A DNA stretch of 64,000 nt from positions 11,861,034-11,925,033 of the forward strand of contig OY755247.1 in the NCBI GenBank assembly GCA_963576725.1, in the 5' to 3' direction. The notes under the pieces were generated by a model. It was not told the DNA's origin, searched no databases, and was given only the letters and a program-made list of their open reading frames with translations. A program made the translations under genes and the position numbers. Origin of the DNA: Azorinus chamasolen (taxonomy: Eukaryota > Mollusca > Bivalvia > Cardiida > Solecurtidae). Position 1 is the stretch's first letter. Each line of letters opens with the position of its first letter. Shown piece by piece: positions 5,901 to 64,000 of this stretch.

Positions 5901-8900
5901 TTGACCATATAGGTTTTGGGTCTTTAAATGGACACATTCTTAGTTTTGAGATTATTTCATTTGTATTTTCTTTAGTATGGTTCAAAGCTGTCTTTTGACC
6001 TAATTATTTAGCATACTCATCAGACTCCAAATTGTTTGACACTTTGTTTAAGGTTGTTAAAAGAAATTTGAGGAAAATCAAGGAAATCAGGAAAATCATT
6101 TCCTCCATAAATACGCCTTTCTACGCCACTGTAAAAATCACTTCTTGAAACTATTGTGATAAATAGAGCATTTGCTCCTATTGGAGCAGATGCTCTATTT
6201 ATCACAATGATTTCAAACAACAAAATTATAAAACTTTACTTTTCTCTAGTAAAGGCTCCTGTTGGGTAGATTCATTCAAAGAGGTTGGGTCTAAAAATAG
6301 CCTATCATGGAGGAATGGGTTAATAGAGATTTGAAGTTAGCATCATGTTTTACAGACACAAGACAGTTCTGTCAATGTGTTTACTATTAAATATACTTTT
6401 TCTGGACATGCCTTACCCTACAATGTTTTCACAGGTTTGGGCCTTATTTTGTGGAGCCTGTTATTGCCGGACTTGACCCGAAGACCAGTGAGCCTTTCAT
6501 AGCCAGTCTGGACCTCATCGGCTGTCCCATGGTGACAGAGGACTTTGTTGTGTCAGGCACATGTAGCGAGCAGATGTATGGAATGTGTGAAACCCTCTAC
6601 AAACCTGACCTGGTATGTGCTTTTGGAAATACAGTAAAAGCTTTCTACAACCATTGAGTAGAAGTCTAATTCGTGGTTTAACTCTCTACCTGATAGATGC
6701 CTATTTTGAGGAAATTTTTTACTTTGACAAAAACTGTAGAATCAGGTCTATTTCATGTCAAAAAGAGGCAGAGGAGACCCTGATCAAATCTATATATCTT
6801 ATATGTATTTAATCAATATGCTAAACTTTGTCTTATATTTACAGGCTGTGTGTTTTAAAGTGTTATTGTTTTATGTTACTATAGTCAGCAAATAGCTTCT
6901 GATATAGCTAATGTTATTTGTTGTAAACTCGACTGCTAGGAGCCCTCTGATCTGGGTCTGCACTGTTTGCAAATTATGACAGCCAACTCATTTTCCTGCA
7001 TTTCAAAGTGTTAACACACTAAAATGTTTTGTTTGTTTGTGTGTGTATGTTCAGGAGCCAGACGATCTGTTCGAGACGATCTCCCAGTGTTTGCTGAATG
7101 CTGTAGACAGAGACGCTGTATCAGGTTGGGGAGGTGTGGTATACATAATGTAAGTTCAAAAAATGAATTTGCTTCACTTTAACCCTTTACTCCATAAATA
7201 CAGTAAAACCTCTCTATAACGGCCACTAAATTGTGTTAATTAGTTGGTATTTAGGGCAGGTGGCTGTTTAAAGCAAGGCGAAAGTAAAACAGAACGCTCC
7301 TATAGGAGCGTTCTGTTTTACTTTCACTTTGCTTTAAGCAACCACCTGTCTTAACACAACATATGTGGTGTAATTTAGTGGTCGTTATAGAGAGGTTTTA
7401 CTGTACGCCTTTCTACGCCTCTGCAAATAGAGTAGACCCAGATCAGATGGTTCCTGTAGGAGCCATCTGATCAGGGTCTGCTCTGTTTGCTTATAATGTG
7501 ATATAGATATGATTCTTCAGTTTCTGCTATGGACAAAAATTTATATTTCCATATGCCATTATAACACTTTCAATAATGAAATTAATATTCATGATGTCAT
7601 ATTTTATTCATGATGTCATTTAATTTCATTCATGATGTCATCATTTTACATGAATCTTCATGGAGTAAAGGGTTAAGGCCACATATAGCCATAATCAATT
7701 TCTCACCCTCTTTCACCAGTAGAAGCCACAATGTGACTAGTGTTTACAAGTATACCGAGGATATTGTTAGTATCATATTCCTTTGAAAAACTTACAACTT
7801 CGAGAAAAACAACAAACAGACCTGAAGAACTTTGATTGACTTAGGAGAGTTGGCATTAGATATAATGCTGAACTATTTGATATGTGTTTTTTGTCTAGAC
7901 TCTCAACAAATGTCATTCTAGATGCAATCGCTGCAAGTTTGAACTTTAGCTTCAGGGCAGAATTCGTTAGGTTTACTGTAATATGGCTAGTCTTGTTATA
8001 CTGGTCTTATGGTATGATTTTGCTTAGTTTGAACTAAGAATTTGTATAGACCCTTTACTGCATAAATAGCGTAGATCCAGATCAGATTTCTCCTGTAGGA
8101 GCCGTCTGATCAAGGTCTGCTCTATTTGCTTGATAGATAATATAGACATGCTTCTACAGTTTCTGCCTTAGTGAAATGTGCCAATATAAAATAATAATCT
8201 AATAAATATTCATAATGTAATTTTATCCAGTCACCAGGCTTCTCTAGTGACATAATAAAGGGGGTGCAAATAAACTTAGGTTTATTAGGTTACTTCCGGT
8301 AGTGGAAGGTTTATTAGGTTAGTAGATCGGCGTAATGATTCTATAACCATGGAACTATTTTAGTTTTCTGTAAATATTCATAAACATGTTGATGGAATAG
8401 ATCTAACAGATCTATTTGGTCACCAGAAGAATTATTTAAATGAGAAAAAATAAAAATAATTGGCTACAGCTGGATTCGAACCCGCACCTGATCCTACAAA
8501 AACTAATTCTAATCTCTCTAGAGACGTCGCCCTTACCGATTACGCCACTGAGGCCATATACAAAATGACGTTGATTTATCACTTTTATTAATTTAATCCA
8601 CCGCTGGCAAACCCCGTTTTTGATAAAATCAAACCTGGAAGCAAAGATTGACAGATAAATAGTAAATGTTTTCTTTTCACTCTCATGATTATTTGATTGA
8701 TAAACTCTTACAGGGGCGGTGATAGTCATAAACCTAAATATAGCCTGTTCAGTTCCATCGATTTCTGAGTGACGTTAGGTAGAATCTAAAAATAGAAACC
8801 GAGACTACGTAACTCAAATTTGACCAAAGAATATAGATGTCTGTTTGAAATAACTTATCGACCCTCGATTCAAATCATCTTATTTTTCAAATTCAATCAC

Positions 8901-10535
8901 GTTTCCCTTCTAGTAATACAGGTATAGAAACTATATTCCTCTGCGGTAGATCATTAGATCTATTTACGTCTAAATGGAAGTGAAAAGGGAGGGATCCGTT
9001 GATCGAAAAACTGCATTTTCAATGTAAATTATTTCAAGAGTGTTATGAGTCTATAAAAAGACACTTAACTATATTGACTGGATAAATCGAATAATAGGTT
9101 AGTGCCGTAGATGGGACGTCTTTATCCGACTCGGAGAGAAAACAGTTGAGGCTCGGCAAGCCTCGCCTCAATGTTTTCTCCCCTCGTCGGATAAAGCGTC
9201 CCATCTACGACACTAACCTATTATTCTCTATATTTCTGACATGATGAATACTGATGGAGATAAGGGTTAAACTTTTCCCTATACTACGTTTATTCCAAAT
9301 TTTAAAATAAAAATAGTAATAATGAAATACATGTAGTAACAATTTAAAAAAAAAAAATAATAATGAAATGTGGAAAGTGGAATATTTATAGCCATTTTAT
9401 AAAGTAAAGAAACAGATCCATCAAATTCCATTAGCAAACAGAGCAGATCCTGATCAGACGGCTCCTATAAGAGCCGTCTGATCTGGCTCTACTCTGTTTG
9501 CAAGAGCGTAAAACATGTTTATATGAGGGAAAAGGTTAATAATAGAGGCTGGGTCTACTCTGTTTGCAAATGTTTTGAAAAATTTCAAAAGCCATCTACC
9601 AAGTCAAGTCATTCTAATATATTGTAATTTTTTCATTGCTGATTTGATTGTCGGATAAAAATGAAAATATGATGCACAAAAACGTTTCATGAAAACTACA
9701 TATTAAAGCAAACAGAGCAGACCCTGATCAGACATTTCCTACAAGAGTTTTCTGATCTGGGTCTACTGAGTTTGCAAAGGCATGAAAGAGGCATTTATAT
9801 GAAGGAAAGGATGAAACTGATAGCGTTTGGTCACACTGTTCTGAAAAACAGTTTTTAAATGTTGAATGAAACCTGATTTGTATGAGTATTTTTAAATCAT
9901 TATATAAAGCCCAATAGAAATGATGGTGGTTCTGTATTTATGATGTTACTTAACCCTTTCCCTCATATAAACGTGTTTTCACGCAATTGCAAACAGAGTA
10001 GACCCAGATCAGAGGCCTCCTAAAGGAGTCGTCTGATCAGGGTCTGCTCTGTTTGCTAATAGAATTTGATAGATCTGTTTCTTTGCTTTCTAAAATGTCT
10101 ACAATGTTCCACCTTCAATATTTCTTATAACTATTTTGTTTACGAATATTCAGTAGGTACTGAAATTTGGAATAAACATAGAACAGGGAAAGGGTTAACC
10201 CTTTCCATCTTCTATGTTTTTTTCAAAATTTCAATACCCGAATATTCATGGAGCATTGTAGCCATTTTAGAAACTAAAGAAACAGATCTGTCGAATTCCA
10301 TTAGCAAACAGAGCAGACCCTGATCAGACAGTTCCTACAGGAGCCATCTGATCTTGGTCTACTCTGTTTGCAGATGCGTGAAAAAGCGTTTTTAGAAGGA
10401 AATGATTAATGTGTATATTCCCTCTTTTGCTTCATTTATATGAGTTTGACAATGACTTTTGATTTTCTTTTTTCACACATTCACAGAGAAAAAGATCAAG
10501 TAACAAAGAGAACATTAAAGGCGAGAATGGATTAA
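2800..10535 (+). CDS. PSMB3: Proteasome subunit beta type-3, spliced gene
   Basis: PSMB3 (beta3) is a non-catalytic subunit of the two inner beta rings of the 20S proteasome, acting in cytosol and nucleus. The visible coding exons are 2800-2984, 4568-4675, 6435-6612, 7055-7149 and 10487-10535, all with GT/AG borders and compatible phases. The protein carries family-typical blocks: [12 protein letters not shown], the DRRFGIQAQ strand, [37 protein letters not shown] with [27 protein letters not shown], and the C-terminal TLKARMD. The beta-3 start keeps Ser-Ile-Met-Ser before YNGG and has no cleavable propeptide with a catalytic Thr, consistent with an inactive subunit. Exon 2 opens in phase 0 at TCT, so the start Met must come from an upstream ATG-ending exon. 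With it, the length is 205 residues, the usual family length. That exon is not placed; Met at 2806 is an alternative start. The introns hold many MITEs. Confidence 0.96.
3030..3120. repeat. Family E fragment
   Basis: It carries the family E end blocks (GGTCCAGATAAGATGCG and ATTATCTGTAGCTCTGG) joined without the central palindrome, consistent with an internally deleted copy. Confidence 0.55.
3179..3406 (+). mobile_element. TTAA MITE, subfamily B (left end degenerate)
   Basis: It contains the B hairpin GAAACCATTGTGATAAATAG with apex CTCCTATAAGAG near 3262. The right end GGGAATGGGTTAA is intact; the left CATTCCCTCATA has lost its TTAACC. It lies in PSMB3 intron 2. Confidence 0.8.
3766..3991 (-). 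mobile_element. TTAA MITE, subfamily A, apex deleted
   Basis: The A arms are present (CAAACAGAGCAGACCCTGAT and its partner), but the CTCC/GGAG apex is missing and both TTAA ends have decayed. Confidence 0.7.
4190..4420 (+). mobile_element. TTAA MITE, subfamily C, degenerate
   Basis: It starts TTAACCCTTACTCCATAA at 4190 and carries the AACAGAGTAGACCC arm. The right half is eroded; ATTCATGAAGTAA remnants lie near 4390-4400. Confidence 0.55.
4568..4675 (+). CDS. PSMB3: PSMB3 coding exon 3
   Basis: Acceptor TTTCAG precedes 4568 and donor GTAAG begins at 4676. It encodes the [18 protein letters not shown] segment through NLLYSRR. The leading A completes the Val codon split from exon 2. Confidence 0.95.
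4777..4966 (+). mobile_element. TTAA MITE, A/C hybrid, hairpin deleted
   Basis: Both TTAA ends are intact (4777-4780 and 4963-4966), but the palindrome arms are gone, leaving CACTTGTTTGTTTATG. A non-palindromic deletion product was thus kept or fixed. Confidence 0.7.
5043..5205 (+). mobile_element. TTAA MITE, subfamily C, 3' truncated by repeat H
   Basis: TTTACTCCATAGACATGGCC, then the GTAGACCCAGATCAG arm and apex near 5125. Its right side is replaced by repeat H starting at about 5208. Confidence 0.6.
5208..5440. repeat. Interspersed repeat H, copy 2 (uninterrupted)
   Basis: It aligns with 1927-2000 plus 2625-2770 and shows the empty-site arrangement of that repeat. AATAATAAATTTTCGG and the following block are nearly identical between copies. 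Confidence 0.65.
5617..5864 (+). mobile_element. TTAA MITE, subfamily A/C
   Basis: The full hairpin has apex CTCCTAGAGGAG near 5693. The right end reads ACAGGGTTAA; the left end is degenerate (TTTAGCCCTCTTCC). Confidence 0.75.
6096..6323 (+). mobile_element. TTAA MITE, subfamily B
   Basis: B hairpin with apex CTCCTATTGGAG near 6178. The right TTAA is at 6320-6323; the left end TTTCCTCCATAAATACGCC is of the variant shared with C. Confidence 0.8.
6435..6612 (+). CDS. PSMB3: PSMB3 coding exon 4
   Basis: Acceptor TTCACAG precedes 6435; donor GTATGT begins at 6613. It encodes [17 protein letters not shown] to ETLYKPDL and ends in phase 0. Confidence 0.95.
7055..7149 (+). CDS. PSMB3: PSMB3 coding exon 5
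   Basis: Acceptor GTTCAG precedes 7055 after a TG-rich tract; donor GTAAGT begins at 7150. It encodes [20 protein letters not shown] through VVYI. Confidence 0.95.
7179..7676 (+). mobile_element. TTAA MITE, subfamily C, carrying a nested family D element
   Basis: The ends TTAACCCTTTACTCCATA (7179) and ATGGAGTAAAGGGTTAA (to 7676) give a terminal inverted repeat of about 17 bp. The C element is split at its TA dinucleotide by the family D copy at 7199-7405. Hairpin apex CTGTAGGAGCC lies near 7455. Confidence 0.85.
7199..7405. mobile_element. Family D palindromic MITE (TA target)
   Basis: Terminal inverted repeats TACAGTAAAACCTCTCTATA and its complement bound a near-perfect palindrome with apex GCTCCTATAGGAGC near 7292. 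TA is duplicated at both borders (7199-7200, 7404-7405). The TA target and short inverted ends suggest Tc1/mariner-type mobilisation (inference). Confidence 0.85.
8050..8225 (+). mobile_element. TTAA MITE, subfamily C, truncated
   Basis: ACCCTTTACTGCATAAATAG, then a shortened left arm, apex CTCCTGTAGGAG near 8091 and right-arm TGCTCTATTTGC. The right end is lost. Confidence 0.7.
8461..8555 (-). repeat. tRNA-like sequence (SINE head or tRNA pseudogene)
   Basis: Reading the minus strand: a 7-bp acceptor-like helix (TGGCCTC with GTAGCCA, 5 of 7 pairs), A-box TGGCGTAATCGG and B-box GGTTCGAATCC. It is 95 nt long, with no clean anticodon stem. Mispairs in acceptor and T stems argue against a working tRNA. 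Confidence 0.55.
9091..9224. repeat. Foldback element, arms about 60 bp
   Basis: The left arm starting AATAATAGGTTAGTGCCGTA pairs with the right arm ending CACTAACCTATTATT. The loop is around TCGGCAAGCC. It differs from the TTAA families and lacks the CTCC/GGAG apex. Confidence 0.85.
9267..9539 (-). mobile_element. TTAA MITE, subfamily A (reverse), expanded
   Basis: TTAA at 9267-9270 and 9536-9539. It is longer than the 249-bp norm because TAATAATGAAAT is duplicated around a poly-A tract near 9340-9360. Apex CTCCTATAAGAG near 9466. Confidence 0.85.
9690..9812 (-). mobile_element. Subfamily A/C hairpin fragment
   Basis: The hairpin arms (CAAACAGAGCAGACCCTGAT, degenerate apex TTCCTACAAGAG) and the GTGAAAG-type right flank remain; no intact TTAA end. 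Confidence 0.6.
9950..10198 (+). mobile_element. TTAA MITE, subfamily A, full length (249 bp)
   Basis: Good reference copy. TTAACCCTTTCCCTCATATA at the left, hairpin from GCAAACAGAGTAGACCC with apex CTCCTAAAGGAG near 10022, a right half carrying GATAGATCTGTTTCTTT and ATTCAGTAGGTA, and ACAGGGAAAGGGTTAA at the right. The final TTAA (10195-10198) is also the first TTAA of the next element. Confidence 0.92.
10195..10409 (-). mobile_element. TTAA MITE, subfamily A (reverse), abutting the previous one
   Basis: It shares TTAA 10195-10198 with its neighbour in inverted orientation. Apex TTCCTACAGGAG near 10338. The right end decayed to GGAAATGATTAA. It ends about 80 bp before the last PSMB3 coding exon. 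Confidence 0.85.
10487..10535 (+). CDS. PSMB3: PSMB3 last coding exon with stop
   Basis: Acceptor TTCACAG precedes 10487. It encodes the [15 protein letters not shown] tail and stops with TAA at 10533-10535. A strong donor-like GTAAGT begins at 10547, eleven bases after the stop, suggesting a 3'UTR intron. Confidence 0.93.
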
Positions 10536-10559: not shown

Positions 10560-10692
10560 CTGCGGCAGATGCACACATTTTTAGACAATGTATCCTTTAT
10601 TTCTCCACCAAACCCAAAGTTGTGACCACTCTTTAGAACTGTCTTGAACAAAAATAATGCAGAAAGCTCCTAGAGGAGAATTTTTTTCTGCA
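10560..10692. repeat. Family E / D' mosaic fragment
   Basis: TTTATTTCTCCACCAAACCC belongs to family E. ATGCAGAAAGCTCCTAGAGG is a D'-type apex with an imperfect partner TTTTTTTCTGCATTAA. Confidence 0.5.
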
Positions 10693-10931
10693 TTAATCCT
10701 TTCAATCATATAAACACATTTTCACACATCTGCAAACATAGTAGTTCCAGATCAAATGGCTCCTATAGGAGCTATCTGATCAGGGTCTGCTTTGTTTGTT
10801 TAAAGCATTGTATAGATTCGTTTCTGCCAAGTTTAAAAAATCCCTTGTCCATTTTCAGTTTAAATGATTATGTCCTTGAATATTCATCAGGTGATAAATG
10901 TTTAATAAATATTGAACAAGGAAAGGGTTAA
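10693..10931 (+). mobile_element. TTAA MITE, A/C type
   Basis: TTAATCCTTTCAATCATATA at the left and GAAAGGGTTAA at the right; apex CTCCTATAGGAG near 10765. Its last TTAA (10928-10931) is shared with the B element that follows. Confidence 0.85.
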
Positions 10932-11146
10932 CCCATTCCCTCATATTGACGCCTCTGCAAAAGTCACCTGTTGAAACCATTGTGATAAATAGAGCATTTG
11001 CTCCTATAGGAGCAAATACTCTATTTATCACATTGGTTTCAAACTACAAAATACCAAACTTTTCCTTTTCTCTAGTTAATGCTCCTTTTCGGTAGATTTA
11101 TTCAAAGAGATTGGATCTAAAAATAGCCTATGAGGTAATGGGTTAA
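10928..11146 (+). mobile_element. TTAA MITE, subfamily B, abutting the previous one
   Basis: TTAACCCATTCCCTCATATT opens it and TGGGTTAA closes it at 11146. It has the hairpin GAAACCATTGTGATAAATAG with apex CTCCTATAGGAG near 11006. Confidence 0.92.
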
Positions 11147-12816: not shown

Positions 12817-13019
12817 TAAAACCTCACTATAACGACCACTAAATTACATCAAGTATTTTGTGTTAAAGGCAGGTGGCTGCTTAAAGCAAGGTGAAAGTAA
12901 AACAGAACGCTCCTACAGGAGCGTTCTGTTTTACTTTCAGCTTGCTTTAAGCAGCCACCTGCCCTAAATACAAACTAATTAACACAATTTAGTGGCCTTT
13001 ATAGAGAGGTTTTACTGTA
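12817..13019. mobile_element. Family D palindromic MITE
   Basis: Long palindrome, apex GCTCCTACAGGAGC near 12914, arms GCAGGTGGCTGCTTAAAGCA. The right end GAGGTTTTACTGTA is intact; the left has lost TACAG. Confidence 0.85.
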
Positions 13020-13035: not shown

Positions 13036-13150
13036 TTAACCCTTTTGGTTATAGTAGAGGAGTTTAGTGGCATTTGCAAACAGTGAAGATCCAGATCAGA
13101 GGACTCCTAGAGGAGTAATCTGATCAGGGTCTACACTGCTTGTGATTCAA
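13036..13150 (+). mobile_element. A/C-type hairpin fragment
   Basis: TTAACCCTTTTGG at the left, the GATCCAGATCAGAGGACTCC arm, apex CTCCTAGAGGAG near 13112. Truncated after CACTGCTTG. Confidence 0.6.
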
Positions 13151-23195: not shown

Positions 23196-23385
23196 TTAAC
23201 CCATTACCGCATAGGCTATTTTAGATATAACCTCTTTGAATAAGTCTACCGAAAAGGAGCATTAACTAGAGAAAAGGAACATCTTAGGATTTTGTAGTTT
23301 GAAACCATTGTGATAAATAGAGCATTTGCTCCTATAGGAGCAACTGCTCTATTTATCACAATGCTTTCATAAAGTGACTTTTTGT
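23196..23385 (-). mobile_element. TTAA MITE, subfamily B (reverse), right end lost
   Basis: TTAACCCATTACCGCATAGG at the left, apex CTCCTATAGGAG near 23334, partner arm ending ACAATGCTTTCA; the remainder is replaced. Confidence 0.82.
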
Positions 23386-43493: not shown

Positions 43494-43743
43494 TTAACCC
43501 TTTCCCTGTTCTGTATTTAGGTCAAATTTCAATACCTACTGAATATTCCTTAACAAAATAGTTATAATGAAATATGCAAGGTGGAGCATTGTAGACATTT
43601 TAGAAAGCAAAGAAAAAGATCTATCCAATTCTACTAGCAAACAGAGTAGACCCTGATCAGAAGGCTCCTCTAGGAGCCGTCTGATCTGGGTCTACTCTGT
43701 TTGCAGATGCGTGAAAACACTTTTATATGAGGGAAAGGGTTAA
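43494..43743 (-). mobile_element. TTAA MITE, subfamily A (reverse), full length (250 bp)
   Basis: TTAACCCTTTCCCTGTTCTG to GAGGGAAAGGGTTAA; apex CTCCTCTAGGAG near 43670. Confidence 0.93.
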
Positions 43744-47238: not shown

Positions 47239-47475
47239 GACGATAGGGATATTCAAATACATACAGATTTACACTGACAGAAGTCGGGCATTTCTTAACA
47301 GCTGGATGTGGCAGAGCTTGCCTTCCTTGTATTGATATTCATTTCCAAATTTTTTTCCCCACAAATTAAAACCTTGGATTTAGGTGTACTGCTTGAAAAT
47401 TTTAAATGTTTAAAGGAAATGGTTGCAAACTGAAAGCATATACATTCTTGGCAGATAAAGTGAATATGCCCTGGA

Positions 47476-49216: not shown

Positions 49217-49446
49217 TTAACCCATTCCCTCATAGACTATTTTTTAGATCCAACCACTTTGAATAAATCTACCGAAAAAGAGCATTTACTAGAGAAAAGG
49301 CATATTTTAGAATTTTGTAGTTTGAAACCATTGTGATAAACAGAGCATTTGCTCCTATAGGAGCAAATGCTCTATCTATCACAATGGTTTCAACAGGTGA
49401 CTTTTACAGAGGCATAGAAAGGGGTATTTATGGAGGAAAGGGTTAA
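49217..49446 (-). mobile_element. TTAA MITE, subfamily B (reverse), full length
   Basis: TTAACCCATTCCCTCATAGA to GGAGGAAAGGGTTAA; apex CTCCTATAGGAG near 49356. The last TTAA (49443-49446) is shared with the next element. Confidence 0.92.
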
Positions 49447-49877: not shown

Positions 49878-50126
49878 TTAACCCTTTCCCTGTTCTATAT
49901 TTAGCCCAAATTTCATACCTATTGAATATTCATTAACAAAATAGTTATAAAGAAATATGAAAGGTGGAACATTGTAGACATTTTAGAAAGCAAAGAAACA
50001 GATCTTTCAAATTCTATAAGCAAACTGAGTAGACCCTGATCAGATGGCTCCTCTAGGAGCCGTCTGATCTAGGTCTACTCTGTTTGCAGATGCATGAAAA
50101 CACGTTTATATGAGGGAAAGGGTTAA
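49878..50126 (-). mobile_element. TTAA MITE, subfamily A (reverse), full length (249 bp)
   Basis: TTAACCCTTTCCCTGTTCTA to GAGGGAAAGGGTTAA; apex CTCCTCTAGGAG near 50053. A small C-end remnant lies just upstream. Confidence 0.93.
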
Positions 50127-52152: not shown

Positions 52153-55100
52153 CTAAAATCACAGTTAGTATTTATTTAACCCTTTCCTTCATACAAACAC
52201 ATTTTCACACATTAGCAAACAGAGTAGTCCCAGATCAGATAGTTCCTATAGGAGCCATCTGATGAGGGTCTGCTCTATTCGATAGTTCTGTTTCTTTACT
52301 TTCCAAAATGGCTATAATTTTCCGCCTTCCATATTTCATTTTATCTATTTTATCCATGAATATCCAGTAGGTATTGAAATTTTGAATACACACAGAACAG
52401 GGAACCGGTCAACGTTCCTTGACCCCTTTACTTGATGAATAGTCATGTAAGACATCGCCCATTATGACTATTAATTAATTCTCAGTGCTAGTATTTAACC
52501 CTTTCCCTTATATAAAAGTGTTTTCACACATTTGCAGACAGAGTAGACCCAGATCAGATGGCTCCTAGAGGAGCCATCTGATCAGGGTCTGCTCTGTTTG
52601 CTAATAGAATTTGATAGATCTGTTTCTTTACTTTCTAAAATGTCTACAATGTTCCAACTTCCATATTTCTATTAACTATTCCGTTAATGAATATTCAGTA
52701 GGTATTGAAATTTGGCCTAAATACAGAACACGGAAAGGGATAAATGCACTGCTATGGTATACAGTCCAAAATCAGATCTGTAAATCATAAGCAAACAAGA
52801 GGGCCGTGATGACCATATATTGCTCATCTAGTAAGTAGGAAAAGTAGTGATCCACTATATACATCTACTATTAATCGTGCTACTGTATTTCACTTTGATA
52901 TAGAAGCATCAAAGGCTCATCCCAAAGAAGTTTGATCAATTTTTATTCTGCAATTCAAGAGAATTAAATTCAAGAAATTATTCTTTGTAATTCATTTTAG
53001 CTCATGTGTCATGTTTATCCCTTTGCTCCATAAATACGCCTTTCTACGCCTTTGCAAACAGAGTAGACCCACATCAGATCAGATGGCTCCTATAGCAGCC
53101 GTCTGATCAGGGTCTGCCCTGTTTGCTTATGATATAATATAGATCTGATTCTACAGTGTCTGCTAGTGCCAAAAACTCCTGTGTCTATATGCTGTTATAA
53201 CAAATTTATGTTATTAGTATTCATGACATCATTATTTCTTACATGAATATTCACAGAGGAAAGGGTTAAATAGCCACATATATAAGTTCGCTACTGGACT
53301 ATCTAAGAATCATTCCTGTGAAGTTTTGCCCAATCCCATTCAGGGGTTTCGAAAGAGATATTGTTTAAAAACTTGTTTATTAAAATCTATTATTAGCTAC
53401 TGTGACCTACTTATACATCTACAGAGGGTGACTGGGTCACCTGATGATTATTCCAGTGAAATATGGTGGAAATCCATTCTGACAGCATTGAAAAGATGCA
53501 TTTACAGAAATTGTTTGTTAAACAGTCTATTTTTTAACTCCTGTGACAAACTTATTACAGTTATACAGCCGACCGCAATGATTTACACAACTCTGAGAGA
53601 CAGTCATCAGAAGACTATTCCTTATAAATTCCACTCAAATTGGACCGTCAGTTTTGGAGAAGAGATTTTTAAAGGTTTTCTACAGTTATATAAGGAAATC
53701 TAGTCCCACCAATGGCGGCCATGTTTTTTTAGATATAAAAATGAGTTCAGCAATTTAACAGAGAGTCAAAAGAAGACTATTCCTATCAAATATTCTATTT
53801 TGAGCACTGGTGTTGGAAAAAAAGATTTTACTTTTGGTTGCCATGGCAACCAGAGTTCTACATGGATCCAGCTTTAGCAATTTTGATATAGCATGATGCT
53901 TAGGTCATTTATGTAAAATTTGGTTACATTCTGCCTTGTAGTTTCAGAGCAGATGTCATTTAATTAAAGCAATTGTTGATGGACGGAAGGACAGACGCCG
54001 GACAAAAGCTCACCTGAGCCAACTCAAAAATCACACACATCTGTACTACTAACCCTTGGCAGTTGATTCTTGAATATCCTTAAATTTGTTTAAAACAGGA
54101 TTGTCCTTATCTGCCTGGAGTTTTAACACGTCCATAGAAGGATTTGGAGAGGAACTTTCTCCCACTGGATCACCCACTGACTGGATAGGCTGTCTTTCCT
54201 TTATGTTCATGTCATACACATTTGAGTTACTGCTGCTGCTGACTAGAGATGAAACTGAGCTTGTGTCCGTCAGGGAACCTCGAGAACTGGAGACCTGTAT
54301 AGGCTGTAATTCTTCATCTGTGTCTGAATCAAGCAAAACAGTAAAATCCCTATAAAGCAATCACTCAAAAGGTCAGTAACTATTGTCCTGCATTGCATTA
54401 AAACCTATTCCTTCATACCTTTCGATGCCTGTGTAAAAGTCAACTTTTGAAATCATTGTCATAAACAGAGCATTTGCTCTAAAGGAGCAAATGCTCTATC
54501 ACAATAATTTCAAAACTACAGAATTCTAATTTGTTTCTAGTAAATGGTCCTATCTGTAGATTTATTGAAAGAGGTTGAGTTTAAAAAAATAGCCTATGAG
54601 GAAATTGTTCAAAGAATGTTTATTCAGTAAGTGGTCACATTTGAACCCTTTACTCCATGAATATTCATGTAGGAAATAATGACATCATGAATAATCAATA
54701 GATTAATTTTCTAAACATATTAATGTATGACCATAGCTGTAACTGTTGAATCATAATCAACTAGAAAATTGTGTCTGTAAGACACAGTGATGCCCCTGTG
54801 TAGGTGCTTGCCTAGCTGCACGTAAACTTTCTAAGTCATTTGACCTTGGGCTTGTGGGCAGCATGGGATGGGTGTGCAATGAAAGCATGGATGGTGTTTA
54901 ATGTGTATATGCAATTCCATGGCAATAGCTACAGTGGTTAGGGAGGTATAAGACAATGAAAAAATTGTGACAAAAAACTGCACGTAAATGTGACAACCAA
55001 CTGCACGTAAAATTTCCAAGTCATTTGACCTCGACCTTGGGCTTGCGGGCAGCATGGTTGGGTTGCCAAATGATAGCAGAGATGATAATTGATGTAATTG

Positions 55101-58100
55101 ACTGCAGGAGCCATCTGATCTGGCTCTATCCTGTTTGTAATGGCATAGAAAGTTGTATTTATGGAGTAAAGGATTAATCTACAAAAAGTATTCCATATGT
55201 AATGCAACTGACATTGATTCATGCCATTAACCCTTTCCCTGTTCTATATTTAGCCCAAATTTCAATACCTACTGAATATTCATTAACAAAATAGTTACAA
55301 ATAAATATGAAAGGTGGACCATTGTGGACATTTTAGAAAGCAAAGAAACAGATCTTTCAAATTCTATTAGCAAACAGAGCAGACCCTGATCAGACGGCTC
55401 CTCTAGGAGCCGTCTGATCTGGGTCTACTCTGTTTGCAAATGCGTGAAAACACGTTTATATGAGGGAAAGGGTTAATACATGCGGAGAAATATAATTTCA
55501 AGGTAAAATAAACGCTGCTTTAAGATCAACACAATGATACCAAATAAATGTGTCATTGTCTTATGAAAACCCTGTTTGAAACACAGTTGATGGTTGGAAC
55601 TTAACAACATATGTTTGTAAAAAGCATGCACTAAATGGTTGCTAGCCCATAATTCTGACCTTGACTAACACCACTAAAAACTTGCAGCTTCATGAGATAA
55701 GTAAGCATGCCAGTATTACTTCTTTATTTCTACATCAAACAAACCCTTTGTTGTGATCACTCTTTAAAATCATCTCAGGAAATACGGAATCTAAGCCAGT
55801 CATACCAGTCCATACACCTTGCCAAATGTAATTAATATGTAATTAATATTATTCAATTTTGTTGAATGACAGATTTCTGGTTCTTGTTGAAGAATGGAAG
55901 TGATTAAAATTTGCTCGGCATCTTATGCCCATGGACATCAGAACTGCTGCAGTAATCAATATACCTGAAAGAGACACTTGTTGTAAACAGGCTAGACCTT
56001 GTAGGAGCCATCTTATCAGGAAAACTATGCTTACTTATGGAATTATATGATTCTAGCCGGGTTAAAGGCTAAAGCAGAACATTTCTTGTCAGTAATTCAA
56101 ATACCAACATTCTGAAGTTATGGGATTTCTAGCTGTGATTAAAACTAGCTGTGTCCATGTGCTGTTATAACAATTAATAACAAAGATATAACAATTAATA
56201 CAATATAATACAATTACATTTATATAGCGCTAAAATTATTATGCAATATTCACTTGTGTTTTACATATTCCTATTTTCAAAGCTCTCAAGATGTGTTAGT
56301 TGAGGAACACACTGAAAAGATAAGTCTTAAGTTTGGCTCTGAATTGGTGTTCACTTTGTAAGCACTTAAGGTCTTTTGGAAGTCCATTCCACCATATCGG
56401 ACCAACCACAGCTATGGAACGATCAGCCAATTTCGTTCTGTTTCTGGGAATGTTTAAGTTAATTTGGTCTGTTCATCTTAGTCTATATTTTGGTTGTTGC
56501 TGACATCATCTCTTGTATAAGTCAGCAGCGTAGCTGAATCCAAATGCAATGTACGCACTGTGGCTATTGGGACATGCTCCCCCGTGAACATTTAGAATTG
56601 TATAGTTTTTAAACCACTGTGATAAATAGAGCATTTGCTCCTATAGGAGCAAATGCTCTATTTATCACAATGGTTTCAAAAGATGACTTTATGTCAAGTC
56701 TACCTCCTGAACTTTCGAACTTTGTTCCGTTTTGGTCATAATAATGTTTTCACCTTTCAAATTGATGTTACGCACGTGCGTAAGTGCGTATCGCTAGCTA
56801 CGGGCCTGTAAGTATTCATGGAGTAAAGGGTTTAAACCCTTTCATTTTTCAATATTCATGTGAGAAATAAGGATATCATGAACATGTATAAGATGAATTA
56901 TAATGTAAAGGATTCGTGTTTGCTTTGACAAGAACTGTTGAATCAGATCTATACCATGTTCAAAGCAAACAGAGCAGACACTGATCAGACCGCTCCTATA
57001 GGAGCCGTCCGATCTGGATCTACTCTGTTTGCGAATGCCTGAAAAAGAGTTTATATGAGGGAAAGGCAAAACATTTCTTGTCAGTAATTCAAATACCAAC
57101 ATTTTGAAGTTTCTCGGTAAGTATTTCCATCTGATCAGGCTCTGCTCTGTCTGCTTATGAAATACTATAGATCTGACTCTACAGTTTTGGCAATGACCTG
57201 CAGCTCCTCTATTCCAGTGTCATTATAAAGATGATCTAATTAGTATTCATGATGTCATTATATCTGAATATTCATTAAGTAAAGACTTAAAGTTAAACAA
57301 CTAAGCATAAAATAAATACTAACTAATTGTCCATTTATTCAGAAAGGTTGGCAAGGAGTGAGATTGTTCCTGCAGGTCTCCCATTCCTAATTCAATATTC
57401 TTGCTCTTAAAAGCCTCATCTTTGTTGTCCCTGGAGCTTGCCATGTTAAGGTTATTGCTTCGCATCCTGTTATCTGGCTTGGCACCTGAAAAAGAGTGTA
57501 TGTCAAGTACCGTAAAGCCTCGCTGCAACAATCACTCAAAGTAAGTCTAATTCGTATTTTTAAACCAATGGTAGCTTAATGCAGGACAGAAGTTATTCAA
57601 AAAGCTCCTACAGGAGCTTTCTGCATTACTTTTGCCCTATATTAAGCAAACTGGTGTTAAACTGTTAAGCAAACTGGTATACAACACTATAGTGCTATTC
57701 CAAGATACATCTAATCAAATATAATATTGGTATTCCTAGGTGTAGCTTAGAAGAAAGCACCAGAAATATAAGTATGACTGAGGGTCCTGATGCTGTGAAC
57801 ATTTCGAGGGCTTGGTACAAAACTATTGTAACTCCTTCACAAAGTGAAGGAGTTACAATAGTTTTGCACCAAGCCCTCAATTTGTGCTAGGTTATTCCAA
57901 AATCCATACATGCATGTCAGAGTTACAGAACTTCGTTCCCAATGTACAACCCTGACATATATGTATTGGACCTGGGTCTTGCATGTGACATGTTGCCGTG
58001 AATATTTGTGCCTGATATTTCAAAAATCCATACATGCATGTCACAGTTACAGAGTGTATATGAAAGTGGGAAGTAATAACTTTTGGTCCCAAAGTGCAGC

Positions 58101-60587
58101 CTTGATCTTTGAGGGAAGGATGTCAGTCTTATGCTCAACATGTTATTGCAAAATCCATACATGCATATAAGCATTACAGAACAGATGCAAACAAGAGCAC
58201 CACAAGCGGGTGCAACGCTCGTCTGTCGTCATTGTCAAGATGAACATGCATACCAAAAATGAAGGTTGTAAATGAAAAATCTAAGAAGTTATAGTCAATA
58301 TTAAGATTTCAGACGATAACGACGACAATGATGCCGGAGTTATGACAATAGATCGTGATTTCTTCGAAACAGACGAGCTAAAAATGGATGCACAGATGGA
58401 GGAACAGAAAGAAAAGCAGAAAGACAGTTCAAGTACTATATGTCACCCTTTATTCAAAGGGCATCATAAAAATGTATTTCATGATTTCAAGTAGACAACT
58501 TTTGTTTTTCGCAGATGAAAGTTACTTTATCATGCAACATTACGAAATACAGTCACTTCCTACTAGCATAATATTTTCCACATCGACGCTGTATTTTGTG
58601 AGGTATAGTGCATGTGTACTGACCCCACTGGGATGCAAGTTTGGTTCAGCCAAAAGGAGGAAAACAGAAGGACGTAAAAGGCATAATTAAACATAAACAT
58701 CAAATTTAACACATTTGCTCACCTTTGCCTCAACTATTTGTCCAGATAAAATGATTAAATCAAGTTTGTTTATGTTGTAAAAGTCGATGACGTTACTGTA
58801 CGCCCACATGACATCACATATATCGCACTTACATTTATTTTCATTCAGGGGACGAAACCGCTTTAGCAATCTTTCTTTTTCTTCATTTTCTCCATTTTCC
58901 TGGGTGTTGCATGATAAAAGAATTACTATGCTAGTATATTGGAAGTTAAGCTGTATTTCGGCTCGTCAGAAAAGTAGTTAAATGCTCGCCAATGCTCGCA
59001 TTTAACAACTTTTCAAACTCCACAAAATACAGCTGAACTTCCAAACTACTAGCATAGTAATTCTTATTTACTCTTCCATGTGAGAAATAATGTCATCATT
59101 AATATATGAATTAGATTAATGTTTATAATGATACCTGAACACAGCATTCTGGCTCACATAAAAACTGTGGTATCAGATCTATATTATACTATAAGCAAAG
59201 AGAGCAGGCTCTGATCAGACAGCTCCTGTAGGAGCAGTGTAATCTGGGTCTACCCTGTTTTGTCTAAAAGGCATTTATATGAAGGAAAGAGTTAAAGCTC
59301 AGTTTTAATGCTATTCACAGAGGTCCAGATGATATGTGTGTGTTAATAAAACATTTTCAAGAATAACTTCTTTATTTCTCCACCAACCCTATGTTGTAGC
59401 CTCTCTTTAGAATTGTCTTGAAGAGACGATACTAAAGAGTGGTAACACCATAGTATTTCGTTGAGAAATGATTCTTTTAGTTCTTTAGTATGCACGTTTA
59501 TCTGTTCAATATATTAGACCTCACCTTCAGTCTCAATTGTTCTTATGAAAGCAACAGCATCATCCATTTTCAACCGCTCCAACATTGTTCTCAAATCTTC
59601 CAGATCATAGTCATGTTGATGAAGCCAATGTAAAAACCCTTTTCCAGACTCCTTGGAATTATCTAACAGGAAAAAGAAATAAAGATAACTAGAAAACTGA
59701 CTCAGTCAGAGAGGGCCCTACAGACGATCATTTGTTGAATGTGGCAATTTTGATAAATAAAGGACAGATAACTCTGGACATGGTGATCTCATTAAACCCA
59801 CAAACTATAGGTATCTTCCTCTCATAGTCATAATACTAAGTATATGCCCTTAATATGAGCCAAATATGTAAAGTACTGTTTGAAGAATCACTTCACATCC
59901 AAAGTGTTGACCAAATTTTATGGCATTTTGGATGAATCAAGGGCATATAACTCTAGACATAGCTAACTGATTCAAGCCAAAAACAATAGGGGTCTTCCTC
60001 ATGTGATACTAAGCATATGCCCTTAATATGAAACCAATAAATAAAGTACTATTTGTGTTATCACGCTTCATCGAAAGGTTTTGTTCAAAATTGTCAAATA
60101 AAAATTAGCCACATACAATAGATGAGAACAAAAGATCTTTTGTTCCCATAGTCACATAAACAGGAATTGTTAGCTTGGACAGACAGACTGACGGACAGAC
60201 AGAAAATGTGATTCCTATACGACTCCTGTATTTTCAATGCAGAGCCCTTATAATAACTTCTGAAACAATATGAAAATAGTTTATAATTATCAACCCCCAC
60301 CTAGCCCATATTCTTCAAAAATAGAGAGATATGCTTGAAACACTATGCCAAATGAAAGGTATTTGCATAGAGTCAGGTGTTTTTCCTTCTGTTAAATTTT
60401 AAAAGATAAGATCCATGCAGGTGCTTACCTATTTTGTCTATTTCATCAGCGGTAATATCCAAATTAATATTTTCATCATCAGCTATTGCCATCCATATGA
60501 CTTCATCATCTTCAGTTTTCTTCTCCAACTCTTTTCCAAGTCGCTTATACGAACTTCCCTTCAGTAACTTCAATGACTTGCCAGAGC
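51212..60587 (-). CDS. Death-domain-like gene with repeated acidic/Gln-rich tail (5' incomplete)
   Basis: I do not recognise a named gene. Five minus-strand exons join in one frame: 60587-60429, 59662-59525, 57485-57324, 54323-54054 and 52152-51212, about 555 residues. Every visible internal border is phase 1, so exons are symmetric. Exons 1-2 together resemble a death domain: a Trp-Met-Ala-Ile-Ala helix, DITADEIDKI, SKESGKGFLHWLHQH, then LEDLRTMLERLKMDDAVAFI, matching the Trp / DEI..I / LL..W / L..L..l..D pattern of the fold. Death domains mediate homotypic assembly in innate-immune and cell-death signalling; the exact role here is unknown. The tail is disordered: Ser runs, QPIQ repeats, and an 84-residue block present twice plus a weak third trace in exon 4. 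No transmembrane segment seen. The first visible exon needs an upstream phase-1 exon that I could not find. Confidence 0.7.
51450..51945. repeat. Coding tandem duplication, period about 252 bp
   Basis: Landmarks: GGAATTGTCCCATAATTTGT (about 51920) and GGAATTGTCTCATAATTTGT (about 51668); CCAAGAGCCGAAGG occurs twice. The frame is preserved, and several differences between copies change an amino acid conservatively (Gln/Asn, Val/Ile, Tyr/Phe), suggesting constraint. Confidence 0.88.
52176..52412 (+). mobile_element. TTAA MITE, subfamily A
   Basis: TTAACCCTTTCCTTCATACA begins only 23 bp upstream (in transcription sense) of the last exon of the minus-strand gene; apex TTCCTATAGGAG near 52248; right end decayed to GGAACCGGTCAA. 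Confidence 0.85.
52495..52743 (+). mobile_element. TTAA MITE, subfamily A, full length (249 bp)
   Basis: TTAACCCTTTCCCTTATATA; apex CTCCTAGAGGAG near 52569; right end mutated to GGAAAGGGATAA. Confidence 0.9.
52796..54025 (+). mobile_element. Pearl-like element in an intron of the minus-strand gene
   Basis: CAAGAGGGCCGTGATGACC at the left, core copies keyed on GAGAGTCA.AAGAAGACTATTCC (about 53600 and 53760), and a right end GGACGGAAGGACAGACGCCG + CAAAAGCTCACCTGAGCC. A C MITE is nested at 53016-53269. A 125-codon open frame at 53326-53703 runs through the core and is not convincing. Confidence 0.7.
53016..53269 (+). mobile_element. TTAA MITE, subfamily C, nested in the pearl-like element
   Basis: ATCCCTTTGCTCCATAAATA at the left, apex CTCCTATAGCAGC near 53092 with a small GATCA duplication, TTAA at 53266-53269. 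Confidence 0.85.
54054..54323 (-). CDS. Death-domain-like gene, fourth visible exon
   Basis: Acceptor TGCTTGATTCAG, donor GTTAGT (same donor type as the previous exon). Encodes DEELQPIQ, a Ser-rich run, ERQPIQ, and NKFKDIQEST, which echoes TDIQQST of the last exon. A pearl-like element end lies about 30 bp past the donor. Confidence 0.7.
54398..54609 (+). mobile_element. TTAA MITE, subfamily B, decayed
   Basis: TTAAAACCTATTCCTTCATA; arm AACAGAGCATTTGCTC, apex CTCTAAAGGAGC near 54480; right end ATGAGGAAATTGTTC. Confidence 0.78.
54645..55176 (-). mobile_element. Subfamily C MITE split by family F
   Basis: ACCCTTTACTCCATGAATAT on the left, then family F from 54761 to about 55090, then AGGAGCCATCTGATCTGGCT and TATGGAGTAAAGGATTAA (end 55176). 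Confidence 0.75.
54761..55090 (+). repeat. Family F repeat, copy 2, with internal duplication
   Basis: CTAGAAAATTGTGTCTGTAA opens it; GCACGTAAA..TTCCAAGTCATTTGACCT occurs twice (about 54820 and 55005), each followed by GGGCTTG.GGGCAGCATG. Opposite orientation to 23440-23622. Confidence 0.75.
55227..55476 (-). mobile_element. TTAA MITE, subfamily A (reverse), full length (250 bp)
   Basis: TTAACCCTTTCCCTGTTCTA to GAGGGAAAGGGTTAA; apex CTCCTCTAGGAG near 55403 with perfectly matched GACGG / CCGTC around it. Confidence 0.94.
55477..56194. other. Unassigned intron sequence with repeat debris
   Basis: A family E fragment (TTCTTTATTTCTACATCAAA) at about 55720-55800 and a decayed C-type MITE at about 55990-56190. 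A possible minus-strand exon near 55963 was considered and not accepted. Confidence 0.35.
56195..56560 (-). pseudogene. L2/CR1-like LINE 3' end remnant
   Basis: On the minus strand, the frame RTKLADRSIAVVGPIWWNGL followed by PKDLKCLQSEHQFRAKLKTY (56455 to about 56310) matches the conserved 'GP.LWN.LP..L......F...LKT.LF' end of LINE reverse transcriptases. A stop lies just upstream of TDQINLNIPRN. It is followed by GCGCTATATAAATGTAATTG, a typical 3' end of L2/CR1-type elements, and an AATTGTATTATATTG tail. Only the last 50 or so codons survive. Confidence 0.8.
56588..56697 (-). mobile_element. Subfamily B hairpin, flanks replaced
   Basis: TTTAGAATTGTATAG, the B hairpin with apex CTCCTATAGGAG near 56645, then AAGATGACTTT. 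Ends lost. Confidence 0.8.
56829..57069 (-). mobile_element. C/A-type MITE (reverse)
   Basis: TTTAAACCCTTTCATTTTTC; apex CTCCTATAGGAG near 56998; C-type left, A-type right (TATATGAGGGAAAGG), a recombinant of the two subfamilies. Confidence 0.8.
57129..57291 (+). mobile_element. Subfamily C MITE, right half
   Basis: CATCTGATCAGGCTCTGCTC with TATTCATGATGTCATTAT and TTCATTAAGTAAAGACTTAA; the left arm is missing. Lies 33 bp from the third exon. Confidence 0.7.
57324..57485 (-). CDS. Death-domain-like gene, third visible exon
   Basis: Acceptor CTCTTTTTCAG, donor GTTAGT. Encodes a polar segment (AKPDNRMRSNNLNMASSRD...LPTFLNKWTI). Without splicing the frame ends at TAG 57321-57319. The phase match with the neighbours favours splicing. 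Confidence 0.65.
57564..57657. mobile_element. Family D' hairpin
   Basis: ACCAATGGTAGCTTAATGCA arm, apex GCTCCTACAGGAGC near 57611, partner TGCATTACTTTTGCCC; terminal TACAGTA ends lost. Confidence 0.8.
57806..57878. repeat. Near-perfect 73-bp palindrome
   Basis: GAGGGCTTGGTACAAAAC pairs with GTTTTGCACCAAGCCCTC; centre CTTCACAAAGTGAAG. A related half (AGAATAGTTTTGCACCAAGT) occurs at about 41628. Confidence 0.9.
57890..58180. repeat. Tandem repeat, three copies, unit about 125 bp
   Basis: AAAATCCATACATGCATGTC.GAGTTACAG recurs at about 57898, 58022 and 58150 with an intervening TTCCCAA / TTGGTCCCAA.GTGCAGCC block. Confidence 0.8.
58192..58384 (+). mobile_element. Core-less pearl-like element
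   Basis: CAAGAGCACCACAAGCGGGT + GCAACGCTCGTCTG at the left and AAACAGACGAGCTAAAA at the right: same start and end logic (CAAGAG ... GAGCTAAAA) as the larger elements but with different hairpin stems and almost no core. Confidence 0.65.
58527..59065. repeat. Dispersed repeat J, copy 2, with inverted end
   Basis: Aligns with 42259-42720 from TTATCATGCAAC through GCTGTATTTCGGCTCGTCAG, then the AATGCTCGCATTTAAC segment inverts the end (ATACAGCTGAACTTCC and ACTAGCATAGTAATTC), forming a terminal foldback. Confidence 0.75.
59067..59296 (-). mobile_element. Subfamily C MITE (reverse)
   Basis: TTTACTCTTCCATGTGAGAA; apex CTCCTGTAGGAGC near 59225; ends GAAGGAAAGAGTTAA. Confidence 0.78.
59320..59515. 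mobile_element. Family E palindromic element
   Basis: GAGGTCCAGATGATATGTG at the left; palindrome around TAGAATTGTCTTGAAGAGAC; ends GCACGTTTATCTG about 10 bp from the donor of the second exon. Confidence 0.7.
59525..59662 (-). CDS. Death-domain-like gene, second visible exon
   Basis: Acceptor TTTCCTGTTAG, donor GTGAGG. Encodes NSKESGKGFLHWLHQHDYD and LEDLRTMLERLKMDDAVAFI, the C-terminal helices of the proposed death domain. Confidence 0.75.
59663..60428. other. Intron of the minus-strand gene
   Basis: Contains two loose copies of a unit with GGACAGATAACTCTGGACAT / GGGCATATAACTCTAGACAT (about 59761 and 59941) and a GGACAGACAGACTGACGG tract near 60177, resembling tandem-core element debris. 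Confidence 0.5.
60429..60587 (-). CDS. Death-domain-like gene, first visible exon
   Basis: Acceptor CTCTGTTAG, donor GTAAGC. Encodes SGKSLKLLKG...IWMAIADDENINLDITADE. It could instead be a first exon starting at an in-frame ATG at 60600, since the frame is open through the acceptor. Confidence 0.65.
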
Positions 60588-63813: not shown

Positions 63814-64000
63814 TTAACCCATTCCCTCATAGGCTATTTTTAGATCCAACCACTTTGAATAAATCTACGAAAAAGGAGCATTAACTAGAGAAAAGGAAAT
63901 TTTCAGAATTTTGTAGTCTGAAACCATTGTGATAAATAGAGCATTTGCTCCTATAGTAGCAAATGCTCTATTTATCACAATGGTTTCAAGAAGTGGTTAT
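63814..64000 (-). mobile_element. TTAA MITE, subfamily B (reverse), cut by the window end
   Basis: TTAACCCATTCCCTCATAGG at the left, apex CTCCTATAGTAGC near 63951, partner arm ending CACAATGGTTTCAAGAAGTG. Confidence 0.9.

What the first reader, a model, noticed from the sequence alone, without database searches (positions are those of the whole stretch)
7199..64000. Unrelated palindromic MITE families share one hairpin apex, CTCC-TNNA-GGAG
A/C arms (CAAACAGAGTAGACCC), B arms (CCATTGTGATAAATAGAGCA), D arms (GGTGGCTGCTTAAAGCA) and D' arms (ATGCAGGACAAAAGTTATG) have no obvious similarity, and the ends and target sites differ (TTAA vs TA). Yet all are centred on GCTCCTATAGGAGC or a close variant; the two middle bases vary (TATA, TACA, TAGA, TCTA, TTTA, TGTA). 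Family E and the other foldbacks lack it. A common apex on different arms is not explained by ordinary MITE descent. It could mark a shared origin by arm replacement, a hairpin-processing or replication-priming site, or a target of a host factor. This is the strongest candidate here for something undescribed.
Basis: seen in the sequence. Interest (0 to 1): 0.8.

Follow-up and report, generated by a model that had tools for sequence, protein, structure and literature searches.

The report
Shared hairpin tip across mosaic MITEs
Three very abundant groups of short palindromic jumping-DNA elements in what looks like a clam genome have different arms but the same hairpin tip, best explained by elements built from exchanged modules around an old tip; a working role for the tip is not excluded.

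Summary
CTCCTNNAGGAG occurs 25 times in the window (0.04 expected) and 473,213 times in the 1.72-Gb source genome; reversed control 604. In 348 kb examined, its arms form three clusters plus 7 single arms. A and B have TTAA/CCC ends (piggyBac-like); D has TA, pogo/Tigger-like ends. D and D' are one family. A/B/D arms align little or no better than shuffles, yet six stem bases are identical; 85 unrelated pairs reach at most 4 of 6. Copy number overstates this: it is two coincidences.

The elements are mosaics: a2 and b2 share 36/38 end bases and the apex, but not arms or tails; A-like arms occur with other ends and other apices. Best reading: one old short inverted repeat, inherited or captured, with arms replaced and made symmetric by fold-back copying. 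Against it: no hybrid-armed copy in 117 sites. The apex is slightly better conserved than the arms in A and D, not in B; families F, E and G lack it. Coral CMITEs are a published precedent for TTAA MITEs sharing interiors under different ends.

The parts
5687..5698 (.). apex CTCCTAGAGGAG in A (a2-type, TTAA) element about 5620-5863
7297..7308 (.). apex CTCCTATAGGAG in D (TA, pogo-like ends) element about 7200-7404
8090..8101 (.). apex CTCCTGTAGGAG in A element about 8061-8227
10017..10028 (.). apex CTCCTAAAGGAG in A (a1) element about 9951-10197
10667..10678 (.). apex CTCCTAGAGGAG with only the inner D core around it (TAATGCAGAAA arms); no D element ends
10760..10771 (.). apex CTCCTATAGGAG in A (a1) element about 10694-10930
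11001..11012 (.). apex CTCCTATAGGAG in B (b1) element about 10929-11145
12910..12921 (.). apex CTCCTACAGGAG in D element about 12817-13018; 85 of 99 arm positions pair
13104..13115 (.). apex CTCCTAGAGGAG in A fragment about 13037-13146
23329..23340 (.). apex CTCCTATAGGAG in B element about 23197-23382
35901..35912 (.). apex CTCCTATAGGAG in D (D') element about 35803-36000; its end matches its own inverted inner arm (0 of 1000 shuffles)
36492..36503 (.). apex CTCCTTTAGGAG in A fragment about 36449-36530, next to a B element
37494..37505 (.). apex CTCCTACAGGAG in A (a2) element about 37340-37571
40378..40389 (.). apex CTCCTAGAGGAG in A (a1) element about 40313-40559
42923..42934 (.). apex CTCCTATAGGAG in B (b1) element about 42790-43016
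43665..43676 (.). apex CTCCTCTAGGAG in A (a1) element about 43495-43742
49352..49363 (.). apex CTCCTATAGGAG in B (b2) element about 49218-49445
50048..50059 (.). apex CTCCTCTAGGAG in A (a1) element about 49879-50125
52562..52573 (.). apex CTCCTAGAGGAG in A (a1) element about 52496-52742
55398..55409 (.). apex CTCCTCTAGGAG in A (a1) element about 55228-55475
56638..56649 (.). apex CTCCTATAGGAG in B fragment about 56587-56690
56993..57004 (.). apex CTCCTATAGGAG in A element about 56835-57066
57605..57616 (.). apex CTCCTACAGGAG in D fragment about 57509-57653
59223..59234 (.). apex CTCCTGTAGGAG in A element about 59075-59294
32151..33523 (+). tandem B-type units, some with odd-centred apex CTCC-ATA-GGAG

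Best explanation
The apex is one old module (a short inverted repeat, GCTCCT-NN-AGGAGC) carried inside high-copy non-autonomous DNA transposons that are mosaics of ends, arms and apex. A and B are TTAA (piggyBac-like) MITEs, and D is a TA (pogo/Tigger-like) MITE. Shown: the shared apex, arms without detectable similarity, two kinds of ends, re-pairing of ends with arms within the TTAA group, and subfamily consensuses whose arms changed together on both sides. Inferred: new families arise when recombination or template switching places new sequence beside the apex, and the short inverted repeat then folds back and primes copying of one side onto the other, giving a new near-perfect palindrome on the old apex. 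D inferred: a pogo-type end came to lie beside such an apex, possibly with a little A-type core (CAGAnn), and was inverted and duplicated.
For: Three arm clusters around 116 apex sites in 348 kb (232 arms: 145 A, 42 D, 38 B, 7 single). Mosaic: a2 and b2 share 36/38 end bases and 14/14 apex bases, while arms (288 of 1000 shuffles as good) and tails (261 of 300) are at chance; a1 and a2 share 28/28 arm bases but only 28/38 end bases. A2 keeps A-like arms (22/28) and the apex stem under an end at chance (191 of 500). A-like arms also sit on other apices (F: GCCGAGTTACTCGGC, 16 sites; a CCTTTTCAAGG type, 4 sites). Subfamily consensus changes are mirrored: 4 of 4 right-arm changes from A to A2 recur on the left (which has one more), and D1, D2 and D3 left and right consensuses are identical. 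In 30 B copies private mutations are not mirrored (3 sites hit on both arms, 2.8 expected, 1 mirrored), so in B symmetry dates from the founding of the lineage. A and D agree at up to 10 of 12 stem bases. L118:419 has the apex with no recognisable arm on one side; L112:3395 leaves the A arm after 7 bases and continues as B flank. Fold-back at natural 3-15 bp inverted repeats is described for inverted duplications in yeast mutants (PMC10622511, passages read).
Against: Of 117 exact apex sites, 112 have both arms from one group, 5 have one unassigned side, and none is an A/B, A/D or B/D hybrid at the apex. I noticed no palindrome freshly extended from the apex, though I made no separate search for one. 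No fourth arm group was found: 0 and 166 sites genome-wide for two exclusion patterns, which by my own estimate about 9% and 32% of random arm families would pass; 14 of the 166 were fetched and all are A, B or D variants. A/D similarity beyond the six apex bases is weak (4 of 6, P about 0.05; gapped tests 44 to 1000 of 1000 shuffles as good). Mirrored subfamily changes would also follow from selection for base pairing, and the copies were picked by both arms resembling a seed, which favours symmetry. In D2 and D3 double hits exceed expectation and are mostly mirrored (10 of 13, 11 of 14): unresolved subfamilies or copying after insertion.
Confidence: 0.5

Rival explanations
1. Functional constraint: the hairpin tip is bound or processed by something that A, B and D elements all use (host factor, shared accessory protein or a hairpin intermediate), so it is kept while arms and ends drift.
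For: It is shared across two end types, TTAA and TA. The stem is identical in the a1, a2, A2, B and D consensuses while the loop pair changes. Apex stem identity is above the arms in A (0.913 v 0.866/0.858, 121 copies) and D1 (0.923 v 0.868/0.863, 25 copies). The three largest clusters among 146 palindromes (59, 36, 30) are the ones that carry it, though 42 of the 348 kb were chosen for apex density and the largest cluster also holds F-type palindromes.
Against: In B the apex is not better kept than the arms (0.958 v 0.970/0.948, 30 copies). F, with A-like arms and another apex, is found at 16 sites; families E and G, less common (6 of 146 palindromes each), also lack it. Its predicted DNA hairpin stability is ordinary.
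Confidence: 0.2
2. Descent for A and B, coincidence for D: both TTAA families inherited the apex from one ancestor, and the pogo-like family reached the same six stem bases by chance.
For: A and B share ends and layout. A six-base stem match has P of about 3.5e-4 per pair, so one coincidence among many palindromic families is not absurd.
Against: Among 85 unrelated (partly non-independent) family pairs in this genome the best match is 4 of 6. D also shares CAGA at the same spacing as A (up to 10 of 12 in all).
Confidence: 0.17
3. One diverged family: A, B and D arms are homologous but too old to align.
For: Shared apex and, for A and B, shared ends.
Against: a2 and b2 ends are 36/38 identical while arms and tails are at chance; divergence alone is hard to square with that. 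A/B/D arm alignments are little or no better than shuffles (the best are 75 of 1000 for A/B and 44 of 1000 for A2/D2).
Confidence: 0.05
4. Assembly or tandem-array artefact, or low-complexity chance.
For: Local tandem arrays exist.
Against: 473,213 sites genome-wide against 604 for the control; sites in 18 of 20 ten-kb stretches placed by me on 11 contigs.
Confidence: 0.01

Closest known systems
Coral CMITEs (Wang et al. 2010, PMC2872659; abstract, sections 10 and 15, and passages read)
   Same: TTAA target sites, mostly CCCTT ends, interior more conserved between families than the ends, tandem arrays of units.
   Different: CMITEs are about 100 bp with one 75-base interior and an estimated 1600 copies in A. 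millepora; here the shared piece can be as small as the hairpin tip, arms differ too, exact tips alone number 473,213, and the tip also occurs in a TA/pogo-like family.
piggyBac/TTAA MITEs
   Same: A, A2 and B start TTAACCC and end GGGTTAA, with short inverted ends; F has TTAACCC ends too.
   Different: No piggyBac transposase parent was identified here (the PF13843 search did not complete), and they carry a strong central palindrome.
pogo/Tigger (DDE_1) MITEs (name recalled; DDE_1 from Pfam)
   Same: D has TACAGTAAAACC... ends at TA; a DDE_1-coding locus in the same genome (L103) has, by eye, a related end TACAGTCAAACCTGG..AACGGCCAC.
   Different: A profile of half of D found no hit in the 12 DDE_1 loci examined, so the parent is not known.
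Fold-back inverted duplications at short inverted repeats (yeast; PMC10622511, passages read)
   Same: Palindrome centred on a natural 3-15 bp inverted repeat.
   Different: Described there for chromosome rearrangements in nuclease-deficient yeast, not for MITE birth; here inferred from structure only.

Membership tests
piggyBac/TTAA MITE (A, A2, B) | TTAA target site on both sides | tested here: met
   Consensus begins TTAACCC and ends GGGTTAA for a1, a2, A2, b1, b2; many window copies keep both. No empty site was compared.
piggyBac/TTAA MITE (A, A2, B) | CC[C/T]T terminal motif in inverted ends | tested here: met
   a1, a2, A2 and b2 read CCCTT; motif as stated in PMC2872659. b1 reads CCCA and does not fit strictly.
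piggyBac/TTAA MITE (A, A2, B) | autonomous parent with piggyBac transposase and the same ends | not tested
   PF13843 search of the own genome did not complete.
pogo/Tigger-like MITE (D) | TA target site and CAGT-type inverted ends | tested here: met
   D consensus TACAGTAAAACCTCTC... to ...GGTTTTACTGTA; window copies. That these ends define the group is recalled.
pogo/Tigger-like MITE (D) | DDE_1 parent with the same ends | tested here: inconclusive
   151 DDE_1 matches counted in the genome (a lower bound); 12 loci examined, L103 has a related end by eye, profile search with half of D found none.
coral CMITE kind | interior better conserved between families than the ends | tested here: met
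   a1/a2 arms 28/28 but ends 28/38; A2/a1 arms 22/28 with ends at chance. The opposite pattern holds for a2/b2.
coral CMITE kind | sequence homology to the CMITE interior | not tested
   The CMITE interior is shown in a figure, which is not held.
fold-back inverted duplication | near-perfect palindrome centred on a short inverted repeat | tested here: met
fold-back inverted duplication | one-sided precursor or freshly made palindrome seen | tested here: inconclusive
   5 of 117 sites have one unassigned side (L118:419 breaks at the apex edge), no hybrids; fresh extension not separately searched.

The most novel reading that the evidence does not exclude
GCTCCTNNAGGAGC is a palindrome seed: a short inverted repeat that, once spread by one MITE family, repeatedly founds new palindromic MITE families by fold-back copying of whatever lies beside it, across transposon superfamilies (TTAA and TA), so that hundreds of thousands of hairpins with different arms and different transposases descend from one tip.
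Probability: 0.25. Interest if true: 0.75.

Novelty: new variant of a known kind. Interest (0 to 1): 0.5.

Why it matters
How palindromic MITEs are born is an open question. A dense set of families that re-pair ends, arms and apices in one genome gives a natural experiment: breakpoints can be mapped and the fold-back model tested with hundreds of thousands of copies. If true, it would also show that a piece of one transposon superfamily can seed another, and it warns that family definitions based on ends alone or interiors alone can split or merge such elements wrongly.

Tried and rejected
Chance or low complexity: rejected. One diverged family: not supported for A/B/D arms, accepted for D and D'. 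Special hairpin stability: not supported, 744 of 4096 stems (308 of 960 with equal GC) are more stable. Apex strongly more conserved than arms within copies: not supported. Further arm families: two exclusion patterns gave 0 and 166 sites; the 14 of 166 fetched are A, B or D variants. My idea that D is two pogo MITEs flanking a captured A core: one copy supports it (35906, 0 of 1000 shuffles), three copies do not (875, 112 and 55 of 1000) and the consensus does not (371 of 2000) (one search stopped on an error after the consensus test). Apex in phages: 81 viral matches, highest palindrome score 14, none with long arms. A/B arms and the A/D core outside the genome: 0 in viral contigs; 3 bacterial matches to a B 20-mer, none palindromic. 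Host genes: no Pfam hit in 5 ORFs, no scored relative of one ORF. Sequence strings in papers: one unrelated paper for the apex (judged by title and abstract start), none for six arm and end strings.
Full report
What was checked. The pattern CTCCTNNAGGAG occurs 25 times in the 64-kb window, 0.04 expected from shuffles. The sites fall to three arm kinds: 14 A, 5 B and 6 D, the D site at 10667 being only a core without element ends. There the pattern occurs 473,213 times, against 604 for the same pattern read backwards. In 20 stretches of 10 kb placed by me on contigs C1-C11, 18 of 20 hold an exact site and 36 of 100 palindromes carry the exact apex. Genome size, GC and what look like 19 large contigs resemble the hard clam assembly described in PMC8905726 (passages read: 1.86 Gb, 19 chromosomes, 35% GC), so a venerid clam is my inference, not a result.

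How many families. In window plus 200 kb, all 72 exact apex sites match A (42), B (16) or D (14). In 348 kb (window, the 200 kb, 12 DDE_1 loci and 12 stretches chosen for apex density) the 232 arms of 116 sites form three clusters of 145 (A), 42 (D) and 38 (B), with 7 single arms, mostly from damaged or rearranged copies. D and D' are one family. Patterns that exclude A, B and D inner arms gave 0 sites and 166 sites (control 2). Of the 166, 14 were fetched, and all are B variants, D variants or damaged A or B copies. By my own estimate such patterns would pass only about 9% and 32% of random arm families, so a further family is not excluded.

Are the arms unrelated? Alignments anchored at the apex are little or no better than shuffles for A, B and D consensus arms (the best, A with B left arms, is equalled by 75 of 1000) and for subfamily arms (the best, A2 with D2, is equalled by 44 of 1000 with one A2 arm and 104 with the other). 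Counting stem bases outward from the loop, A, B and D share 6 of 6, and A and D share up to 10 of 12. Among 85 unrelated family pairs, not all independent, the best is 4 of 6 and 7 of 12. A six-base match has P of about 3.5e-4 per pair. So the sharing is real but rests on two coincidences, not on 25 or 473,213. Beyond the first six bases A and D match at most 4 of 6 (P about 0.05), in A with D1 and D2 the CAGA at the same spacing: suggestive only. A and B match 0 of 6 there.

What the elements are. The A, A2 and B consensuses start TTAACCC and end GGGTTAA; F copies also have TTAACCC ends. This fits the hallmarks of piggyBac/TTAA elements quoted in PMC2872659 (TTAA sites and a CC[C/T]T end), with b1 reading CCCA. 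D starts TACAGTAAAACC and ends GGTTTTACTGTA; its copy at 12817-13018 pairs at 85 of 99 arm positions. A DDE_1-coding locus of the same genome, L103, has by eye a related end, but a profile of half of D found no hit in 12 such loci. A, B and D hits sum to 17,127 bases of the 64,000 in the window (102 hits).

Mosaic structure. Consensus sequences from 70 a1, 47 a2, 14 A2, 33 b1 and 24 b2 copies were compared by segment. a2 and b2: ends 36/38, arms at chance (288 of 1000 shuffles as good), apex 14/14, tails at chance (261 of 300). a1 and a2: ends 28/38, arms 28/28, tails 91/141. b1 and b2: ends 28/38, arms 28/28, tails 99/104. A2 and a1: arms 22/28, apex 12/14 (the loop pair differs), ends at chance (191 of 500). 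A-like arms also occur with other apices. In 246 palindromic sites found by arms alone, A arms had the shared apex at 73 and other centres at 77, most of those by eye decayed forms of it; F arms had the F apex GCCGAGTTACTCGGC or close forms at 16 and other centres at 24; four A-arm sites had a CCTTTTCAAGG centre. F and the CCTTTTCAAGG type have their own TTAACCC ends. So ends, arms and apex have been re-paired, and A and B are neither one diverged family nor independent. Mosaic repeat families in general are known (PMC1431705, passages read).

Symmetry and conservation. Copies were found by their arms alone, with the apex ignored. The stem bases of the apex agree with consensus at 0.913 in A (arms 0.866 and 0.858; 121 copies), 0.958 in B (0.970 and 0.948; 30) and 0.923 in D1 (0.868 and 0.863; 25). 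The A and D arms contain subfamily-variable columns, so the excess there is small. The loop pair is much less conserved in A (0.56 and 0.64). Between subfamilies, arm changes are mirrored: 4 of 4 right-arm changes from A to A2 recur on the left, which has one more, and D1, D2 and D3 have identical left and right consensus. Private mutations in 30 B copies are not mirrored: 3 sites hit on both arms, 2.8 expected, 1 mirrored. Other groups are less clean: A 131 double hits, 80.6 expected, 32 mirrored; A2 10, 4.9 expected, none mirrored; D1 1, 0.5 expected, 1 mirrored; D2 13, 6.0 expected, 10 mirrored; D3 14, 5.6 expected, 11 mirrored. A and A2 arms can be read in either orientation, which mixes two columns; D2 and D3 probably hold unresolved subfamilies, but copying between arms after insertion is not excluded. 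Copies were picked because both arms resembled a seed, which favours symmetry. My reading is that symmetry is set when a lineage is founded, by fold-back copying or by selection for pairing.

Mechanism. Inverted duplications in nuclease-deficient yeast are centred on natural 3-15 bp inverted repeats and ascribed to fold-back annealing (PMC10622511, passages read). A 6-bp stem with a two-base loop is such a repeat. I propose that this repeat, spread by the TTAA elements, became the centre of new palindromes when new sequence came to lie beside it. Shown: shared centre, different arms, mosaic ends, mirrored subfamily changes. Inferred: fold-back as the copying step, and capture by the pogo-like D. 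Missing: of 117 exact sites, 72 are A/A, 20 B/B, 20 D/D, 5 have one unassigned side and none is a hybrid. Of the five, L118:419 has no recognisable arm on one side right up to the apex, and L112:3395 leaves the A arm 7 bases from the apex and continues as B left flank. The genome-wide hybrid count was asked for repeatedly and never answered.

Function of the apex. Its hairpin stability is ordinary, and F, E and G do without it. For a role speak its presence under two end types and the fact that the three largest of the palindrome clusters carry it (59, 36 and 30 of 146, sample partly chosen for apex density). A role is not excluded.

Precedent and novelty. Coral CMITEs are TTAA MITEs whose interior is more conserved between families than the ends, with tandem arrays and an unexplained interior (PMC2872659; abstract, sections 10 and 15). 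The TTAA part here is the same kind of thing on a far larger scale. New to me are the reduction of the shared piece to a hairpin tip on different arms and its presence in a TA element. My searches for the sequences in the open-access library found nothing relevant. Searches on MITE palindromes, MITE chimaeras and MITE mosaics showed no such report among the titles and abstract starts listed (25 of 98, 15 of 214, 6 of 6); the coral paper came up only through a search for end sequences (25 of 58 listed). Most subscription papers and the repeat databases were not searchable.

Noticed in passing
window 31855-33523 and 63306-63641: Tandem arrays built from B-type MITE units (about 150-178 bp) and from a 56-bp B right-end unit (6 copies, 98%); coral CMITEs also form arrays.
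   Followed up: partly
window 10196, 10929, 49444: TTAA MITEs sit back to back sharing one TTAA (GGGTTAACCC junctions), as if inserted at each other's TTAA ends.
   Followed up: partly
L118:5756, L119:679, L126-L130: B copies carry inserts of a few bases at one point close to the hairpin tip (such as GCAT|CAAAT|TTTG), in one or both arms; some resemble the opposite arm, as if copied by a template switch inside the hairpin.
   Followed up: partly
L131-L134, L138: D1 variants in which one or both arms lack GA at the same place (AAAACAACG), in several copies on both arms.
   Followed up: partly
L112:3395: A palindrome whose right arm breaks after CCATCTG into the left flank of a B element, with TCTG shared at the joint: a natural A/B junction.
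   Followed up: partly
L091:9648: D palindrome without the apex: the 12 bases are gone between AGCT repeats (AAAGCTTT), as expected from slippage across a hairpin.
   Followed up: no
window 21917-22473: Large inverted repeat, 258-nt arms, 98% complementary, 41-nt spacer; F-type palindromes at 21947 and 22441.
   Followed up: no
window 47475-47928: 15 copies of a 30-bp tandem repeat that keeps reading frames open on both strands.
   Followed up: no
window 29633-29703: tRNA-Arg-like sequence on the minus strand (Rfam 37.6 bits).
   Followed up: no
window 62008; L083:5109; L096:2089: Other palindromic families (E: GAGCCTTTGGCTC tip; G: tips such as GTCTCTTTGAGAC) with GC-rich stems at a short loop, without the shared apex.
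   Followed up: partly
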